From positions 1 through 23,301 of the forward strand of contig JAAVVG010000056.1 in assembly GCA_012976225.1 (NCBI GenBank): a DNA stretch of 23,301 nt, in the 5' to 3' direction. A program made the translations under genes and the position numbers. The notes below the pieces were generated by a model, which did no database searches, was not told the origin of the DNA, and saw nothing but the letters and a program-made list of their open reading frames with translations. This stretch comes from Golubevia sp. BC0850 (lineage: Eukaryota > Basidiomycota > Exobasidiomycetes > Golubeviales > Golubeviaceae). Below are positions 2,061-19,894 of this stretch, piece after piece (position 1 is the stretch's first letter; each line of letters opens with the position of its first letter).

Positions 2061-4713
2061 TTAGAAAGCCATATTATTCCTAACCTCATCACCCTTAGCT
2101 TTCCCACCAGCATGATACCTCCCTCCTTTAGCCGCATTCGATTTCTTTCCATGATGCTTAGCAGCTTTTTTCTCTACTCTGAGTTTCTCAGCTGCAACTC
2201 TTTGAGCGACCAATCTTGGATCTCCATCTGCCAAAGCTTTCATTGCAGCTCCCTTTGAAGGAATCCCAGAAGTTTTGGCCTTTGCTTTGATAGAACGTTT
2301 AGATTTTGGTTTCTTGGAAATGGGAAGAGTTTTTGCTGTTCCTTCCGCTTGTTCTGATTCTTCTTGATCTTCATCTTCATCTTCGGATTCTTCTTCTTCC
2401 GAATCTTCGGATTCTTCTTCCTCCACAGTTTCCGTTGGTTGGCCTTCCCCTTCTGGTTTCTTGATGTTCGTTGAGAGTACGCTTTCCAGAAACTAGTGGT
2501 CGAAAAGTGGGAAGCAGATGAGAGTAGAGGAGAGAGATTAGCCTCCGCCCTCTCTCGCAATCTTGAGACTTCAAGGTCCAAGATCCAACAGGAGTCCATC
2601 GCTTCGACGTGTCCCATCTGTCAGACTATGACTCACCCTATCCTCTTCCTTCTCCCTCTTACTAGCTCCAGCCCAACCAGAAGCCCTGGCTTCAACGTCC
2701 AATTCCAAAATCTCTCCTAAACTTCCATCGTCGACATCTTCCTCTTTCTCTCCTTCCTCTTTCTCTCCTTCCACTTTCTCTTCTCCATCTTTTCCAAGAT
2801 CTGCAATTCCATCGGTTAATCCATCGACTCCATCTCTTTCTTTCTTCTCCAACGCTTTCTTCTTCTCCTTTCTGATTTTCAAAACCTTGTCTCTGACTTG
2901 CATTACTTCTTTGAAGGAAGGAGACTCTTTAGAATGGAATCTAAACCGTTTTCGGAAGAATCTTTGAATGCATTCAACGTCTCGATCGAAGAAGCTGGGG
3001 GGCGGGAGGAGACAAGTCAGATTTTCTTGCATCAAATGGGTTGAAATATAGGTTTGAATCACTCACTATTCAGCGTTTTCATGTTGAACGCTAACCATTT
3101 GAGGGAAATCAATCAAAATAGGTTTAATAGTAGTACCATCTTGAAAATGAATTTCTTCCTTTGCTTTTTCTTTTGCTTCTCTTCTCTCTTCGTAATCTTC
3201 CTCATCCTCATCTTCATTTTCACTTTCTTCTGAATCTTCATCTTCATCTTCATCCTCTTCCTCATCTTGAGTTTTTTCAGTTTCAATCTTAACAATCCTC
3301 TGAAAACCATTTCCATTTTCAACTTTTTCCCCCTCCTTTTCCATAAATCCACCTCTTCTTCTATCATCAGCTTGACCTCTCAAATCGAATCCACCATCAA
3401 CACTTCCACCAGTTCCTTTCTTTTCCATTTCTCTCAATTGTAAGATTTGATTCCCATCTCTTTTCCTAGATCTAGATTCCATTTCTAAATCTCTTTCTGC
3501 AACTCCATTTCCATACTCTCCATCTTCTTCTTCTTCTTCTAGAAATGACTCTTTGACCAAGAGATTGAATTCATTGAAATCTCCATGGATTAGACCCGCT
3601 CTTGCTAGTTTGACTATTAACTTCATTAGAGCATCGTAGAGTTTTGGGATTTGATCTAGAGGAAGGGAAACGATTTGTCGTAGAGGATAGGCTGGAATTA
3701 ACGACATCACTATTGAATGTCTGGAATGAGAAATTGGAGTTGGGACTGGGAAGGAGTTTTGATGGAGTAGCTACAAGGGGAAAGGGAAAAGAAGGGGATG
3801 ATCAGTCAAATGTCTTTTTACCAGATCAAAGCCTTGCGTCTCACGAGGACTTGATATTCGTAGCTTTTCGAAAAAGAAAGAGATCAAAAGAAGAATTCGA
3901 AGGAGAGAAAAAGAGGGGGGGACTTACCTGCATAAACTTGAATTCCTTTTCAGCTCCCAATTTACTGAGATACATCCAACTTGCAGACCGTCTGTTGCCT
4001 AGATAATCACGTTTTTCCTTGATTTTTCGAAAGGAGATACGACCCAGACGATGGATTTTTAGGATCTGTTGTACGTCAGAGGGAGAAGAACAGAGGTAGA
4101 TATCTGGAGAGAGGTCGAGGAAAGTTCGAGTTAGAGCAGCGTAATACAAGACGACTCCAGATCAGGAGTCTGGATCTTCAGTAAAGCGGGAGAAGTTGGA
4201 AGAGTAGACAGGAATCGAAGAGAGAAGATTCTTGAGAACCTTGCAGTTGTACCCTACTTTGCCGCATTCATACCCACTTGCCAATTCCCAGGCCTCACCT
4301 GTCCCTTCTACGTTTGAAGTAGATCTAAGCAATCACTATCAGCTTGATGTTCCTACTGCAAGACCCGACTGCTCTAAATTCTGTTTGGACTCACCACTCT
4401 CTTTTCCAACTCCCACTCGATGTCCAACTTTGCCAACAGATTGATCCTCTCTGAATTTCCTGACAGCCAAGAAATCGTAACCACCATAAGTCAACCTGTA
4501 ACCATCGTATTTCGCATTTTGAACTCTAGCGATCAAGTTTCTTTTGGCCAATTGAGCGATCAATTTGTTGATTCCAGAATGAGCCAAATGAGAAAGTTGA
4601 GCTATTAAACCGGTTGGTACGATTTCATGATTCTTTGATCCAATCTCTACAGATCTTAACACTTTAAACTCTTCTACTGTCAAATACCTTAAATCGGTTG
4701 CGTCTAATTTCAT
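2061..4713 (-). CDS. RIO2: Serine/threonine-protein kinase RIO2
   Basis: Atypical kinase/ATPase that binds pre-40S ribosomes and is needed for late cytoplasmic 18S rRNA maturation. Exons on the minus strand: 4713-4395, 4103-3928, 3770-3067, 2994-2637, 2492-2061; 662 residues. The start gives the conserved N-terminus MKLDATDLRYLTVEEFKVL. Residues 1-80 form the RIO2 winged helix. The ATP loop GVGKESD is at 101-107, the ATP-binding lysine is probably K122 (ILKIHRLG), the catalytic loop HGDFNEFN has D229, and the metal-binding IDFPQ has D387. These two aspartates are normally about 17 residues apart. Here 158 residues separate them because of an acidic Glu/Asp/Lys-rich insertion. YFFDRDVECIQRFF follows, and the tail is acidic then Lys-rich, as in family members. 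Intron sizes are 291, 157, 72 and 144 nt. It is divergent from the RAX1-like gene. Identity is very sure; the exon 5 acceptor is the weakest junction. Confidence 0.93.
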
Positions 4714-5062
4714 ATTTCTTGGTCGTCGTTGAGAGCAAGAGAAGATTCTCCAGTTGACTTTTTCTGCGGTTCCTTTCCCTAGCGACCGCGGTCGCGGGGA
4801 TTTGGTGGTGTTTCTCGCGGGCCAAACAATCGTCAACTCCTATTCCCTTATTCTTTTTAACAATCCTTTTCAAGCTCCACTCTTTGATTTCTAACAACTG
4901 AACAACTCCGAACCCTGGGCTTGCTCAGTCTCAAGTCCCGATCCGATCCAGCGAGAGAGACGAGAGAGTTACAGCTACAGTTGGCCAGTTGCCCCTCTCT
5001 TCAACCTCTACAACTAAACTACTCAACCTTCAACTCCTCTAATCTCCAAACTTCCAAGGATC
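4714..5062. promoter_or_regulatory. Divergent promoter region between RIO2 and the RAX1-like gene
   Basis: The 349 bases separate two start codons that point away from each other, so both promoters must lie here or overlap it. The most distinct feature is a perfect GC-rich palindrome at 4782-4795. No clear TATA box was seen near either start. Confidence 0.6.
4782..4795. promoter_or_regulatory. 14-bp perfect palindrome GCGACCGCGGTCGC
   Basis: GCGACCGCGGTCGC is identical to its reverse complement and stands out from A/T-rich surroundings. It lies 69 bp upstream of the RIO2 start and about 270 bp upstream of the RAX1-like start. Its half-site GGTCGC also occurs at both window ends and near 9956. 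A dimeric regulator site is inferred, not shown. Confidence 0.4.
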
Positions 5063-10265: not shown

Positions 10266-10271
10266 TATAAA
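10266..10271 (+). promoter_or_regulatory. TATA box of the repeat-protein gene
   Basis: TATAAA lies 137 bases before the ATG. It is followed by a long C/T-rich tract (about 10300-10350), an arrangement typical of strongly expressed fungal genes. It is the clearest TATA box attached to a complete gene in this window. Confidence 0.7.
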
Positions 10272-10407
10272 GGGATCCAATTTCTACCTGGCCTTTCTAA
10301 ATTTCCTCACCCTCTCCTTTCTTCTTCTTCCTCACTTCAAATTTGTAGCTGGTCTACCTTCATTCTATTTTTCAATACCTCTTTTTCAGTCCATCAACTT
10401 ATTCAAA

Positions 10408-11286
10408 ATGCAATACTCCAAAACCCTCCTACTTTCTGCTGTTGGTTTGGCCGGACTGGTTTCCGCTGCCCCTGAGAAAAACTTCAACACTGTCAACGTT
10501 GTGAGTAAGAAGGTAGCTTCTTCTCTTTCCTTTTCTCCGCTAACACACATCTCCTACCTTTCCATCTCCTGTCAGGCCGATCTCGAGAAGTACTTCTCAA
10601 ACATCGATCCAAGTGTCATGCTCAAGCGCTCTCAGCCTGAGCAAGCCGACTTTGTCGATGTCAACAGCAAGAGGTCTCATCAAGATCTACTCGATCTAGA
10701 TGTAAACCTCGCAAAGCTCCTTAACTTAAACATCGACGTCAGTAAGAGAAGTAGTGGTTTGAATCTCGATTTAAATTTGGCCAAGATTCTCGGTTTAGAT
10801 GTTGATCTCACCAACAAAGGATTGAAGGTAGATGGCAAACTTGGAAAGTCAAGCCTCAACTTGGGTGTTAAAGCTAAGAGGGACCTCGATTTAGACGTGC
10901 AATTAGGAAAGCTTCTTAACCTTGACCTCAACGCTAAAAGAAGTCAGTCTTCTCATCAAGATCTTCTCGATTTAGATGTCCAGCTAGGAAGGCTTCTCAA
11001 CTTAGACGCTAACCTCAAGAGGTCTTTGTCGTTGGATTTGGATATCGGAAGGTTGTTGGGATTAAATGCTCAGCTCAACCAGAAAGGTTTAGATGTCAAC
11101 GGAAAGTTGGGAAAGTCAAAGATCAACCTAGACGTCAAAGCTAAAAGAGATTTGGAACTTGATTTAAACTTGGCTAAGCTACTTAATCTCGATCTTAACA
11201 TCAAGAGGAGTGAACCTACTAACGAAGATCTTTTCGAATTGGGAGCTAACCTCGGGAAGATCTTGAACTTGGACGTTAGAGTTTAA
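10408..11286 (+). CDS. Secreted Kex2-processed repeat protein (cysteine-free amphipathic peptides)
   Basis: Predicted secreted precursor of several peptides. The signal peptide MQYSKTLLLSAVGLAGLVSA ends in a VSA|AP cleavage site. Exons are 10408-10500 and 10576-11286 (267 residues); the 75-nt intron has GTGAGT, a CTAAC branch site and GTCAG. After it the protein is cut up by eight Lys-Arg pairs, the Kex2 (Golgi furin-like) signal, into nine peptides of about 15-44 residues. Three peptide types recur as A-B-C, A-B-C, A: A contains DLLDLDVQLGRLLNLD, B contains GLKVDGKLGKS, and C contains DLDLDVQLGKLLNLDL. Alternating Leu/Asp suggests amphipathic strands or helices. The spliced product has no cysteine. 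The layout recalls Ustilago Rep1 repellents, which coat aerial hyphae, but I see no clear sequence match. Cyclic-peptide precursors are less likely because tyrosine-bearing core peptides and UstY-like neighbours are absent. Role inferred: cell-surface or secreted peptide. Confidence 0.85.
   Translation: MQYSKTLLLSAVGLAGLVSAAPEKNFNTVNVVSKKVASSLSFSPLTHISYLSISCQADLEKYFSNIDPSVMLKRSQPEQADFVDVNSKRSHQDLLDLDVNLAKLLNLNIDVSKRSSGLNLDLNLAKILGLDVDLTNKGLKVDGKLGKSSLNLGVKAKRDLDLDVQLGKLLNLDLNAKRSQSSHQDLLDLDVQLGRLLNLDANLKRSLSLDLDIGRLLGLNAQLNQKGLDVNGKLGKSKINLDVKAKRDLELDLNLAKLLNLDLNIKRSEPTNEDLFELGANLGKILNLDVRV
10675..10941 (+). repeat. Coding tandem repeat unit 1 (peptides A-B-C)
   Basis: This is an 89-codon unit starting at SHQDLLDLD and ending at NLDLNAKR. 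It contains peptides of 25, 44 and 20 residues, each closed by Lys-Arg. Confidence 0.85.
10942..11208 (+). repeat. Coding tandem repeat unit 2 (peptides A'-B'-C')
   Basis: This is a second 89-codon unit, from SQSSHQDLLDLD to NLDLNIKR, with peptides of 27, 42 and 20 residues. The unit length equals unit 1 although two inner peptides differ by two residues in opposite directions. A further partial A-type peptide (11209-11283) ends the protein. Confidence 0.85.
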
Positions 11287-13567: not shown

Positions 13568-14917
13568 ATGGCAACTCACAAAGTCTCGCAACAAGCTTCG
13601 GAAGATGGATCCTTCAAAAGGCAAGATGCTCAATTTCGTAACTTCATATCAAAGGATGGACCTCATCAACCCGAGAAAGGAAGGTCAGTATCGGTATAGA
13701 GGAAGGAAACAGACTTCAAACTTGGATGAGAAGGTTCTTGTTCTTGTCCTTGTCTCGTCCTTGTCTCGTCCTCACCCCTCCATTCAACTCAAGTATCTTC
13801 TCGGAGACATCCAGCTAACCTCTCCCATTAATCTCTGATATTTTTCTGCTCAGATACATCGTCTACGCTGGTTTGATCTGCCCTTGGGCCTCCAGAGTTC
13901 TTCACATCAGGTCTTTCAAACATCTGGAATCGATTCTCGACGTCGCTATCGTCGATTGGGAATTGACTCCTCAAGGCTGGACTTTCAACAGAAGAACCAA
14001 AGAAGCGACCGGAGATCCTCTGTTCAACTCGGATTTAATCAGAGAGATTTATCATAAAGACGACCCAACTTATGACAAACGCTACACCATCCCGGTTCTC
14101 TTCGACAAGAAGTTGAACAAGATCGTCTCCAATGAGAGCTCAGAGATCATCAGGATGCTGAACGAAGAGTTCGACCATCTCTTACCAGAAGGAGATAGTG
14201 CCAGAGGGGTCACCTTCTATCCCAAAGAGCTTAGAGAGGAGATAGATCGCATCAACGGTGAGTGGCTTACATTCACCCATCTTGAGCTTGACTTTAGCTA
14301 ATCGCCTTCTTCTTTGTCTTGCAATCCTCTAGAAATCACCTACCATGGATTGAATAACGGAGTGTACAAGACAGGTTTCGCCTCCTCTCAGGAAGTCTAC
14401 GAGGAAGAGTGTCAAAAGGTCTTCAAAACTCTGGATTTTCTAGAGAACTACCTGAATGAGAAACCTAGAGATTTCTTGATCAAAGGCTCCAAATCTCTCA
14501 CTGAAAGTGACGTCAGATTGTATGTCACTCTAATCCGATTCGGTGAGTTTGGCTCTCAAGTCGAAATGGGGTTGCTCACTCTCTTGAGTCTTACTAATCA
14601 ACCTCACATGAATTCTCGCAGATGCTGCCTATGTCACAATGTTCAGGTGCAATTTGACTTCAATCAGACATGGCTATCCAAATCTTCACAAATGGTTAAG
14701 GCGCATGTATTGGGATTACGAAGAATTTTCAAAGTGGTCAAACTTCGAGCACATCAAGAAGTGAGTTTCGCTTTCCTATTCACTCTTTCAAACTTGATCT
14801 CTTTTGCTGATGGTAAATCTTCTTACTACTGAACTTTACAGGGGCTACTCTCAAGCAAGTGGTGCTCCCACGGTTCCTTTGGGGCCTATCCCTGATATTC
14901 TAAAGAAAGACGCTTGA
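13568..14917 (+). CDS. ECM4: Glutathionyl-hydroquinone reductase (Ecm4 / Xi-class glutathione transferase)
   Basis: Reduces glutathionyl-hydroquinones, using glutathione and an active cysteine. Exons are 13568-13683, 13854-14257, 14333-14542, 14622-14760 and 14842-14917; 314 residues against about 320-370 in relatives. The thioredoxin-fold half has YAGLICPWASRVLHIRSFK with the catalytic cysteine at about 48 in the Xi-class CPWA motif, then DKRYTIPVLFDKK and SNESSEIIRMLNEEF (glutathione site). The helical C-terminal half has EITYHGLNNGVYKTGFA, ESDVRLYVTLIRFDAAYV and the Xi hallmark RHGYPNLHKWLRRMYWD. Introns are 170, 75, 79 and 81 nt. The first residues after the start, FRNFISKDG, fit the usual entry to the domain. 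Divergent from the sulfurtransferase; convergent with the transporter. Confidence 0.93.
13748..13769 (+). repeat. Short tandem repeat in intron 1 of the Ecm4-type gene
   Basis: The 11-base unit CCTTGTCTCGT occurs twice in a row and is preceded by related TTGTTCTTGT. It lies wholly inside the 170-nt intron. Confidence 0.6.
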
Positions 14918-15308: not shown

Positions 15309-17812
15309 TTAAGCTCCTTTCTCGCCTTTCTCCTTTTCTCGGTTCGCCATGGTTGTCGCTCTTCTTCCGTCTCGCTGTGTTCTCTCGTGAGACAAACTCT
15401 GAGCGAACGGAGATTTCGCTCTGATCTCTGGTCCCTTGAAGTAGACAACGTAGAGCGGAGCTACGACGAGAAGAGCTAGGAAGCCGAGTAAAGTGGAAGC
15501 CCAGTTGACGGACATCGGTCCTAGATTCTTGTAGAGTGGCGTTGAGTAGAGAGCAGCAATTCCAGCGAGGAAATCTCGAGCGAGAGCGTTTCCTCCAGTT
15601 CTGTAGGTAGAAAGTAGGAATGAAGGGAAGGAGAGAAAAGGAAAGAGTCATTCACTCATTCAAACCACTATGACTTGGAAAAAAGAGAGCAAACTCACGC
15701 GCTAGCCGCATATTCTCCATAAGCAGCCACTGAAAGAAGGTGGAGAGTGACAAGAAAGAGTCGTCATACGAGAAGGTCAGTAAGATGCAGCGGTGGCAAG
15801 AGTCAATCTTTACTTTTCGCAACTCACCCATGTAGTCGATCGTAGCGAAGCTGGTTGAAGAAGAAAAGTGATTGGAGAAGGTCAGGGACAAGACGCACAT
15901 TATTTGAGAACGAATTTAGACTCGGAAAAGCTTCTTTCGTACTCACTAGATGGCGTAATTGGCGATCGCAATCCATGTCGCAAAGAACATAGGAGCGATC
16001 CAATGAGTCTGTGGCGCACCAATACTACTCCAGGCGAATCCAAATAGTCCTGAGATTAGGAAGAGGAACGGAAGATGAGCAAGAGAGCAAGCGGTGGAGC
16101 TCATGGCGGGGGTCCTTCGACTCTCGCTTCGGCTTGTCTAGTTCACTTACCTAGAGGTTCCAGAGGACATAAGAAGAGAAGCCACCAGAGACGAGCTTCG
16201 GGAGATACTGCCTCTGGCCCCTTCCTCGCTCTGATCTTCTTGAACTTCAAGATCGGATAGATGAAAGAAGCATAAGCTAGGAAGTAGCCCAGAACGATAG
16301 AGCAGAAAGCCAATCCAGTTGCGATCGTTCCGAAATCCCATAAAGCGAAGACTGGATTGAACCCCTCGAGGAAAGTGAAAATGAGAGCGTCTGGAAATGA
16401 GAAGGAGGAAGAGGTCAGAACTCAAGATCAGGTGTAAATGAGATCCCTCGACTTTTAACCTTACCTGAGAACCCGGATAGAAGCGACAAGAACAAGACAA
16501 TAGGCTCCTTGACGAACATGATGAAAGGTCTAGCCCAGGTGACACCGATTTCATGCATCGAGAATCTGTTCTCTTTCAATTCGTTAGGTCCGTAGATATT
16601 GGTTTCTCCAGCTGCTCTTCTTCTTTTGGCTACCCTGTCCAAGATGATTGTACTACGAGTTTCAGGGACCAAGAAGATGTGGGCTATGAGAGAGAAAGGA
16701 AGAAACGAGGCGAAGAAGAGGTCACAGATCAGGGGGTCAGCTTTCTCTCAGATTTCTCTCCCGCTCTTCTTCCACTTACCAATCTGAACCACTCCACCAA
16801 AAATCAACTGAATCCAAAAGATCCATTGTAGAGAAAGGTAACGTTGAATGAAAGCTCCGACAATTGGACCTACTGTCGTTCCGCCCACAGATGAAAGAAC
16901 TACGAAAGCCAAAGGGAATTGTTGATCATCTGGCTCCCACATATCTGCGACCATTCCAAGTGTGACTGATCCTCCTGCAGAACTAAGACCTCCGAGGAAA
17001 CGACAGACTACGATAGTGGCGTAGTTGGGAGCAAGAGCACATGGAATTTGCCAGATATTGACTAGAAGTTGAGAAAGTTGAAGAGTAGGCCACCTTCCAA
17101 GCTCTTCTGACCAAGGAGCCCAAAGTTCAGAACCGAAAGCGTAAGCCACTAGATAAGTCATTTGAGGAACTCTGGCAGCTGAAGAAGGGAGGAGGAGAAA
17201 GGTGTCAGTCGAGAGCAGAAGAAGACTGCATGCGTAATGACTCTCACCTTGTTCTGAGACGTTGTACTGTTCTGCGATCTTAGTGACTGCATTGGGATAG
17301 ACTGAAGTGTTGAAGTTGAGAGAAACTTGAACTGCAAAGATGACTGAAAGGATGGTCCACTTCTTCCAAGTCTTCAGTTGGGAAAGATTAATCAGGGGTG
17401 TGAGCTTCATCTCCTTCAAACGCATCCTTCTACTTTCCACTATTCGAAGTTAAACTATAGAGTTCCATACCTCCAATCATCAGTTCCGGTTCCCAGCTAC
17501 GAAGTCTGAACTTACAGGATATGAGAAGCCCAGCTCCTCCCAAGCATCATCCTCCCTCAGTTGAATCTTGCCATCTTTCCTTTCCGATTTCCTGTCTTCC
17601 AAAGGAATCAAATCACCGTTCACATCATGTGTTTCAGTTGCAGTCGGTTCTTCTGGAGGACCTGGGATTCCTCCTTTCTTTTCATCATCTGGTGGAGGTG
17701 CTTCTGAGGAGCTCCCCTCTTTGGTGTTCTTCGGATTTGAATTGGAGCTGATAGATTGGGTATCAGAGCTTGTGGGAGATTGGTTCCTCTCAGCTGGATA
17801 GGACCCCGACAT
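15309..17812 (-). CDS. MFS transporter, drug/H+ antiporter (DHA1) type
   Basis: Plasma-membrane proton antiporter family that exports drugs, polyamines or other small molecules; the substrate is unknown. Exons on the minus strand: 17812-17516, 17371-17248, 17178-16780, 16683-16465, 16390-16151, 16049-15947, 15850-15828, 15729-15699, 15600-15309; 575 residues. About 97 Ser/Pro/Glu-rich cytosolic residues precede helix 1, entered by GFSYP|TWKKWTILSVIF across intron 1. The loop after helix 2 reads APWSEELGRWP, where relatives usually have GRRP. Helices 4-6 include GGLSSAGGSVTLGMVADMW and SSVGGTTVGPIVGAFIQ. The central loop carries LVPETRSTIILDRVAKRRR. The second half has FTFLEGFNPVFALWDFGTI and ATGGNALARDFLAG, and ends in a hydrophilic Lys/Glu tail. 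Exons 7 and 8 are only 23 and 31 nt. Family certain; exact subclass less so. Confidence 0.9.
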
Positions 17813-18252: not shown

Positions 18253-19894
18253 TCACCAACCTTTCCCTTCTTCCCACTTTGCCAATTCCCCAAAATAACA
18301 AACGATAGCTTTAAGCTTATGACCCATCCATTGTTCTTCTACCACAATATCCGTTTCTTCCTCTTCCCCTCCAATAACCTCCTTCCCGTCCTCCATCGAC
18401 CCAAGCTTTGCAACTTCCTCCAAATCTGTATTCCTAGGAAGATAAAATGCCACATTACAATCTTGAGCTAAAATCTCCTTTTCCGTTCTGACTTCCCCTG
18501 CTTGTCCTTGTTCTCGAGACTTCAACCTCTCTTCAACAATTTTCCATGTAGTCGTAATCTGTTGTGACAACTCAAACATTCCTTGACCTGATATTGGAGC
18601 TAGAGCTGAAAGTGGATACAAATCAGTGTAAGGATGAAGGGTTTGAATCGAAGAAGAAGTGGTGGAAGTTTGAAGGATTGCAGTTGGAGTTTCTGAGATT
18701 GGAACCGCAGTGGCTGAGTTGGAGTCTTGAGAGACAGTTGTTGGATCTAGAGGTTTTAGAGATGATGGGTCGAGGTAGGTGACTCCACCCCATGGAGGAG
18801 ACTGAGTAGAAGTGGATATGGGAGACGAGAAGGGGTCGAAAGTCAGCTTAAGGGTTGCAGAGCAACAGCGTTGCAGATTTTATCTCCAGATGCCAAGAAT
18901 TCAATTCAACACACCAAAAAGACGCTGCAAACGAAAGAAAGAGATCATCAAGATGTTAGCATAGCTACGCCTTTCTTCTCAACTCGACCTTCTTGAACAT
19001 CACTCACGCATCAATTTTAGCTTTCTCCATCCCTCCCCACTTTCCATCGTCCGTTCCATTGACTTTCAATTCGTCTTCAGATAGTTCGATGGCCTTCTCC
19101 TTTCCCTTCCTAGATCCACCATTCGATTGATTCTTGACAGAATTCCAATGTGAAGAATGAGCTTCTGCGAATTCTACAAAGTCTCCTACTATGAAAGTGA
19201 TTCTATCTGCTACACCATAAATAGCAGCTTAGGGAATCCATCATCGAAGAGGAGAAAAGGCGATAGGTATCAGTCAGGCGAGGCGAAGAAAAGAAAGAAG
19301 AGACTTAGGCTGAAAAAAGCCACTCACCATTATGTTGAGCCATCTTAACTTTCACTGGATCAATATCGATAGCTATGACTAAGATTTTCGGAAAGAAAAG
19401 AATGAAGGAGGAAGTCAATGAGAGAGATGAAAGAAAGTCTACGCAACCGTCTTCAGAAAAGACTCAATCGAAAAAAAGACTAACCTCTCTCACAAGTCAT
19501 AGCAAATTGAATAGCGTTGCCACCAGCTCCACAGAAACCATCTAAAATGATGTCTGATCTACATCTCTCAGCTATTCTGGCAGCCATTGCCTCCGGAGTG
19601 ACTGAATACCAAGATTGTTCGTCTAGTAAGATTCCATCTGAGAAATGAGAGAATAAGGCGTGTCGAGACCACCAATCTGAAGAGAGTAGAAAGAAACTTT
19701 AGATCACAGATCTCGAAAATGAGGGAGTGAGGGAGGGAGGTAAAGGACGGGGGGGAAAAGAACCTACATTTTTGAAGATTTTCAGGCAATTGATTTTTGG
19801 AGGTTACAGCTTTTTCTCTCCACCATTTGTCTGAGGCTGGATAGTCTTGAGAGATTTTGGGCTGGCTTTGAGTACGCTTTCGTTTCTTTCCCAT
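18253..19894 (-). CDS. TGS1: Trimethylguanosine synthase (cap hypermethylase)
   Basis: Uses S-adenosylmethionine to convert the m7G cap of snRNAs, snoRNAs and telomerase RNA to the 2,2,7-trimethyl form in the nucleus/nucleolus. Exons on the minus strand: 19894-19768, 19676-19485, 19378-19328, 19227-19008, 18925-18916, 18801-18253; 382 residues. The short Lys/Arg-rich start MGKKRKRTQSQPK could be a nuclear signal. The fold then gives YWWSRHALFSHFSDGILLD, SWYSVTPEAMAARIAERC, motif I LDGFCGAGGNAIQFA, IAIDIDPVKVKMAQHNA and ADRITFIVGDFVEF. After a linker of about 40 hydrophilic residues comes the catalytic VFLSPPWGGVTYL, whose tryptophan stacks on the methylguanine in known structures. The end has VAFYLPRNTDLEEVA and GHKLKAIVCYFGEL. 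A 55-residue Ser/Thr-rich insert follows SPPWGG. Exon 5 is only 10 nt. Identity is firm. Confidence 0.93.

What the first reader, a model, noticed from the sequence alone, without database searches (positions are those of the whole stretch)
10408..11286. Undescribed-looking Kex2-processed repeat protein with an A-B-C / A-B-C / A peptide grammar
The secreted precursor has eight Lys-Arg sites releasing nine Leu/Asp-rich, cysteine-free peptides of three recurring kinds. Two successive units are each exactly 89 codons although inner peptides differ by plus and minus two residues, so unit length seems kept. The alternating hydrophobic/acidic pattern could self-assemble on the hyphal surface, as Rep1 repellents do. 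I recognise no family match.
Basis: partly seen in the sequence, partly recalled or inferred. Interest (0 to 1): 0.8.

Follow-up and report, generated by a model that had tools for sequence, protein, structure and literature searches.

The report
Fungal precursor of amphipathic secreted peptides
A fungal gene encodes a secreted protein built to be cut into seven similar short peptides with one water-repelling and one water-loving face, which probably coat the cell surface; it belongs to a known broad class of peptide precursors, but its sequence matched nothing in the libraries available here.

Summary
The observation largely holds. Window 10408-11286 encodes a secreted precursor (267 aa after removing a probable 75-nt intron) with eight Lys-Arg sites (shuffled mean 1.1, maximum 6) and the order A-B-C/A-B-C/A, both units 89 codons. 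Corrections: seven, not nine, fragments are of the three kinds; 'cysteine-free' depends on the intron; equal unit length is one comparison and weak. More telling, A, B and C are one module: seven cores fit hphphph-[AG][KR][LI]-hphphph at 94 of 98 scored places (shuffled 64 +/- 3), while a helix template does no better than shuffles. 156 of 168 residue differences between copies keep hydrophobic/polar class; dN 0.24-0.28, dS 1.3-2.5. Selection seems to keep a physical pattern, not an exact ligand. The genome has a kexin. It fits KEX2-processed repeat proteins, a known class. Best reading: amphipathic beta-hairpin peptides that assemble at the cell surface, like Ustilago Rep1 repellents; homology to Rep1 was untestable. 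AlphaFold models were too poor to help and lean helical. No fungal proteome could be searched.

The parts
10266..10272 (+). TATA-like box TATAAAG, about 140 bases before the ATG
   Evidence: read directly; no expression data
10408..10467 (+). signal peptide, residues 1-20 (cut predicted at VSA/A)
   Evidence: by inspection of the translation: n-region Lys, hydrophobic core, small residues at -3/-1; no signal-peptide program available
10501..10575 (+). probable intron, 75 nt, in frame and without stop; alternative donor at 10513
   Evidence: GTGAGT donor, CTAAC branch, pyrimidine-rich stretch, CAG acceptor; no RNA evidence
10468..10629 (+). pro segment up to the first KR (interrupted by the intron)
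10630..10674 (+). 13-mer (+KR), an A-like head without the core
   Evidence: alignment to A2 z 3.4, A3 z 3.0, B2 z 2.4, A1 z 1.5 against 300 shuffles each
10675..10749 (+). peptide A1, 23 aa + KR, net charge -3
10750..10881 (+). peptide B1, 42 aa + KR, core plus basic extension, net +2
10882..10941 (+). peptide C1, 18 aa + KR, core alone, net -3
10942..11022 (+). peptide A2, 25 aa + KR, net -3
11023..11148 (+). peptide B2, 40 aa + KR, net +2
11149..11208 (+). peptide C2, 18 aa + KR, net -3
11209..11286 (+). peptide A3, 25 aa, net -3, and stop codon

Best explanation
This is a KEX2-processed repeat protein (KEP). The precursor enters the secretory pathway by its signal peptide; the kexin encoded on contig C5 of the same genome cuts after eight Lys-Arg pairs, and a carboxypeptidase (KEX1, assumed) trims the basic ends. 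This yields seven peptides of 18-42 aa (and a 13-mer). Each of the seven holds a 17-residue core of near-strict alternation, hphphph-[A/G][K/R][L/I]-hphphph, which as a beta hairpin with a three-residue turn would put the Leu/Val/Ile side chains of both strands on one face and the polar ones (mostly Asp and Asn) on the other. A adds a polar head, C is the bare core, B adds a second, basic and Gly-rich segment. The peptides most likely assemble as beta sheets at the cell wall or at an air/water or hydrophobic interface, doing the work of repellents. Shown from sequence: sites, repeats, pattern, conservation of the pattern, kexin gene. Inferred: cleavage, hairpin shape, assembly, surface role.
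For: KR enrichment and placement; the kexin exon matches the S. cerevisiae Kex2 structure 1OT5 at E 2.1e-119, and the next ORF downstream on that locus holds a hydrophobic stretch like a membrane anchor, by inspection. Binary template 94 of 98 places against shuffled 64.1 +/- 2.9, highest of 5000 shuffled sets 74; the four misses are all Ala. Helix heptad template 92 of 119 against shuffled 89.7 +/- 2.7, reached by 482 of 2000. Hydrophobic moment at 170 degrees 0.298 against 0.226 +/- 0.019, reached by 0 of 500 shuffles; at 100 degrees 0.229 against a shuffled mean of 0.238. 156 of 168 residue differences between cores keep class, 38% expected for random differing pairs. Unit 1 against unit 2: dN 0.24-0.28, dS 1.28-2.52 (the YN00 method returned nothing). 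The seven peptides are 32-83% identical in pairs, whereas KEP repeats are described as identical or nearly identical (PMC6339444 abstract). Rep1 precedent: Kex2-released amphipathic imperfect repeats form surface-active amyloid-like fibrils (PMC4617103, passages).
Against: Both AlphaFold runs gave low-confidence models with helices and no strands (mean pLDDT 53.9 with 3 aligned rows, 40.3 alone). The binary template was written after seeing the alignment, and the seven copies are homologous, so they are not seven independent tests. The genome also carries hydrophobin matches. No expression or peptide data.
Confidence: 0.5

Rival explanations
1. The peptides are diffusible signals or host-interaction peptides (as proposed for many KEPs) that act on a receptor or on other organisms, with no assembly.
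For: KEP peptides characterised so far act mostly as mating factors, virulence factors or mutualism modulators, and knockouts of six C. cinerea KEPs had no apparent axenic phenotype (PMC9769878 discussion).
Against: Copies differ at many places while mainly the hydrophobic/polar class is kept; no Ste13 signature, 0 of 8 KR sites is followed by XA or XP; no Trp, Tyr or Cys in the seven peptides.
Confidence: 0.22
2. Membrane-active peptides, in the manner of the Ece1 polyprotein of Candida: one kind (most likely B, net +2) acts on membranes and the others are carriers.
For: Ece1 is also a Kex2-cut precursor of eight peptides of which only some are repeated (PMC7329392 passage); B differs in charge from A and C.
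Against: Five of seven peptides are acidic (-3); helical amphipathicity is not above shuffles; B is only weakly basic.
Confidence: 0.1
3. The protein is not cut: a Leu/Asp-rich repeat protein works whole as a wall or solenoid protein, KR pairs being loop residues.
For: Secreted fungal repeat proteins that work whole exist (recalled); the two units are of equal length (89 codons).
Against: 8 of 11 Arg lie in KR pairs, all at module borders, including borders where the flanking tails differ in length; a kexin is present.
Confidence: 0.1
4. Ustiloxin-type (dikaritin) precursor: the cores are cyclised by UstYa-type enzymes.
For: Same precursor layout: signal peptide plus KR-bounded repeats.
Against: No UstYa (PF11807) match in the genome, though that search rang in no control genome and is weak evidence; no Tyr or Trp in the seven peptides; Pfam hits among 17 scanned window ORFs are RIO2, GST, MFS and cap methyltransferase types.
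Confidence: 0.02

Closest known systems
KEX2-processed repeat proteins (KEPs; PMC6339444, PMC7329392, PMC9769878)
   Same: Signal peptide, similar peptides bounded by KR, kexin present.
   Different: Repeats are 32-83% identical in pairs, not near-identical as the class is described, and come in three lengths; in the survey PMC6339444, 2 of 1193 KEPs had three motif types and 77 had two.
Rep1 repellent precursor of Ustilago maydis
   Same: Imperfect amphipathic repeats between Kex2 sites, released as peptides of tens of residues.
   Different: Rep1: 652 aa, 12 repeats of 34-55 aa, ten products of 35-53 aa and one of 228 aa (PMC4617103); here 267 aa and peptides of 18-42 aa with a two-strand binary core. 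Sequence comparison was not possible.
Hum3 and Rsp1 of U. maydis
   Same: Amphipathic (Hum3, 31-36 aa) or hydrophilic (Rsp1, 18 or 21 aa) imperfect repeats with putative Kex2 motifs (PMC4617103).
   Different: Hum3 has a hydrophobin domain after the repeats, absent here; Rsp1 repeats are hydrophilic.
Ece1 of Candida albicans
   Same: One precursor cut by kexin into eight peptides of more than one kind (PMC7329392 passage).
   Different: Here the seven main peptides share one core and five of them are acidic.

Membership tests
KEP (criteria of PMC9769878, seen as a passage) | at least 2 cleavage sites, under 800 aa, one fragment at least 70% identical to two others | tested here: met
   267 aa, 8 sites; C1 to A2 15 of 18 and C1 to C2 13 of 18 identical, by my global alignment without KR, not by their BLAST script
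KEP (all three definitions) | signal peptide by SignalP | tested here: inconclusive
   typical signal peptide by inspection; SignalP not available
KEP (pipeline of PMC6339444) | at least 4 fragments after cutting and at least 3 of one motif, covering at least 15% of the protein | tested here: inconclusive
   8 KR sites; seven times an 18-residue motif is 126 of 267 residues (47%); the FIMO step was not run (criteria)
KEP (criteria of PMC7329392) | at least 3 repeats of 8-100 aa between Kex2 sites | tested here: inconclusive
   lengths fit (18-42 aa); their 40-residue seed scoring was not run (criteria)
KEP | kexin in the genome | tested here: met
   G000 contig C5 near 266.5 kb, P_proprotein E 2.3e-16; kexin 1OT5 E 2.1e-119
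KEP | peptides actually released | not testable with these tools
   needs mass spectrometry
Rep1-type repellents | amphipathic imperfect repeats between Kex2 sites | tested here: met
Rep1-type repellents | sequence homology to Rep1 | not testable with these tools
   no Rep1 sequence was at hand and no fungal protein collection is offered
Rep1-type repellents | surface-active amyloid-like fibrils on hyphae | not testable with these tools
   pattern only; AlphaFold uninformative
Ascomycete alpha-pheromone type | Ste13 dipeptides XA/XP after KR | tested here: not met
   0 of 8 sites
Ustiloxin-type dikaritins | UstYa (DUF3328) gene near by | tested here: inconclusive
   no match in the genome at E 0.001, but the search rang in none of 14 control genomes
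Hydrophobins | eight conserved Cys | tested here: not met
   no Cys in the spliced protein; no PF01185 hit for it

The most novel reading that the evidence does not exclude
One gene fixes the make-up of a three-part surface film: acidic amphipathic hairpins with a polar head (A), bare (C), and with a basic extension (B) are released in a set ratio of 3:2:2 and co-assemble through opposite charges into a designed-looking beta-sheet coat of a kind not known to me among repellents or hydrophobins.
Probability: 0.15. Interest if true: 0.7.

Novelty: new member of a known kind. Interest (0 to 1): 0.38.

Why it matters
The functions of most KEPs are unknown (PMC9769878 abstract). Here the sequence itself narrows the choice: seven diverged copies keep a binary hydrophobic/polar code rather than exact residues, which points to assembly rather than receptor binding and can be tested with three short synthetic peptides. 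If right, repellent-like peptides exist beside hydrophobins in another fungus and offer a simple natural amphipathic-hairpin surfactant.

Tried and rejected
Paralogues in the own genome: none for the 236-aa mature part or for a 47-aa piece at E up to 10, apart from the gene itself (single-protein queries only). Relatives in viral contigs and GTDB genomes: 19 and 129 pattern hits, none confirmed by tblastn; both are the wrong place for a fungal gene, so this says little. Naming the fungus: the 5.8S rRNA search found nothing and a text search on genome size found nothing; left undetermined. Structure: both AlphaFold models were too poor for a fold search, so none was run. Unit length of 89 codons as a constraint: rejected as too weak (one comparison). 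Codon use as a sign of high expression: Leu codons are mixed and nothing was concluded. One search failed on a script error and was rerun. In one search the row for B2 began one codon late, at a TTG shown as M; that alignment was used for display only. Sub-threshold Pfam hits DUF3581 and DUF4321 were taken as chance.

Reading: PMC6339444, abstract, results and pipeline section; PMC7329392, abstract, detection section and passages; PMC9769878, abstract, discussion and passages; PMC4617103, passages. The Rep1-1 fibril paper PMC2666566 is not held, so what is said of it comes from PMC4617103. PMC5923269, PMC8528282 and the candidalysin papers were seen only as search listings. Seven paper searches were made; none looked for the peptide sequence itself.

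Full report
What is there. The frame 10408-11286 on the + strand encodes a protein with a signal peptide (by inspection) and eight Lys-Arg pairs. A stretch 10501-10575 has the marks of a fungal intron (GTGAGT, CTAAC, CAG) and is 75 nt, in frame and free of stops, so the ORF reads straight through it. With it removed the protein is 267 aa with no Cys and no Trp. A second donor at 10513 would add four residues.

Fragments. Cutting after each KR gives the signal/pro segment, a 13-mer, then A1 (23 aa without KR), B1 (42), C1 (18), A2 (25), B2 (40), C2 (18), A3 (25). Units A1-C1 and A2-C2 are both 89 codons. The part after the signal peptide holds 8 KR pairs; 20,000 shuffles gave a mean of 1.1 and at most 6. 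Each of the 21 pairs among the seven peptides scores above at least 298 of 300 shuffles; the 13-mer resembles the polar head of A2 and A3 (1 of 300 shuffles reach it, each), less so B2 (10 of 300) and A1 (26 of 300).

One module, three dresses. A, B and C share a 17-residue core. I wrote the template hphphph-xxx-hphphph after seeing the alignment and scored its best placement in each peptide and in 5000 shuffles of each. The seven peptides score 13 or 14 of 14, 94 of 98 in total; shuffled sets average 64.1 (sd 2.9, maximum 74). A heptad helix template does no better than shuffles (92 of 119; shuffled 89.7, 482 of 2000 reach it). The hydrophobic moment at 170 degrees, from residue 64 on, exceeds all 500 shuffles; at 100 degrees it lies below their mean. 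In the middle of the core stand A/G, K/R, L/I in all seven copies. With those three as a turn, columns 9 and 13, 7 and 15, 5 and 17, 3 and 19 face each other; these columns are LIVFM in 52 of 56 cells and Ala in the other four. This pairing is inference.

Selection. Between unit 1 and unit 2, identity at codon positions 1, 2, 3 is 0.70, 0.85, 0.43 over 258 bases; dN is 0.28 and dS 2.5 (NG86), or 0.24 and 1.3 (LWL85); YN00 returned nothing. The duplication looks old and the protein is held. Among 168 differing cells in pairwise comparison of the seven cores (18 columns less the first), 156 stay within LIVFMA or within the rest, against 38% for random differing residues; the pairs are not independent. 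What is kept is the pattern. C1 is closer to A2 (15 of 18) than to C2 (13 of 18), so neighbouring modules may have exchanged sequence.

Processing. The genome (25.77 Mb, 64 contigs) gave one P-domain match, from two candidates scored; the 407-aa open stretch at that locus aligns to kexin 1OT5 at E 2.1e-119, and the following ORF has a hydrophobic stretch fit for a membrane anchor (by inspection). KEX1 was not searched for. No UstYa match was found, but that search rang in no control genome either.

Surroundings. Of the 27 other window ORFs of at least 120 aa, 17 were scanned against Pfam and six had hits: RIO2 (two ORFs), a glutathione S-transferase (two ORFs, the second just under its cut-off), an MFS transporter and an RNA cap methyltransferase. 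Nothing suggests a cluster. The genome has hydrophobin matches (9, mostly exons, the ninth in an 883-aa frame and doubtful), which fits a mycelial basidiomycete and means that repellent-like peptides would not be its only surface-active proteins.

What is known. KEPs are widespread: 1193 in 226 species in one survey (PMC6339444), 7878 in 1345 of 1461 strains in another (PMC7329392 abstract). Coprinopsis KEP peptides have been seen by mass spectrometry and knockouts of six KEPs had no apparent phenotype (PMC9769878 abstract and discussion). Rep1 peptides, ten of 35-53 aa and one of 228, form surface-active amyloid-like fibrils (PMC4617103 passages). The present gene fits the KEP criteria as far as they could be run here, and on sequence grounds works most like Rep1; membership among repellents is open.

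Weak points. AlphaFold models (pLDDT 53.9 and 40.3) are helical where they have any shape. A recalled AGGRESCAN scale gives means near or below zero. No fungal collection could be searched, so the lack of matches cannot be read as 'new'. The fungus is unnamed and expression unknown.

Verdict. A real gene of a known class with a clean and testable pattern.

Noticed in passing
G000 contig C6: 82176-82542 (-) with 178458-178824 (+), and 477303-477653 (-) with 528300-528650 (+); loci L004-L009: Hydrophobin matches lie as two inverted pairs on one contig; the copies of a pair are 94% (814 bases) and 99.5% (1110 bases) identical in opposite orientation. Could be recent inverted duplication, gene conversion or assembly.
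   Followed up: partly
window 3066-4839 (-), 13819-14832 (+), 16748-17449 (-), 18253-18879 (-): Neighbouring ORFs with Pfam hits are housekeeping types: RIO2 kinase, glutathione S-transferase, MFS transporter, RNA cap methyltransferase.
   Followed up: no
window 10501-10575: The probable intron is a multiple of three and open in frame; if retained it would add 25 aa with a KK pair and the only Cys.
   Followed up: no
window 10882-10941 and 10942-11022: C1 is closer to its neighbour A2 than to C2 (15 and 13 of 18 identical), a possible sign of exchange between adjacent modules.
   Followed up: partly
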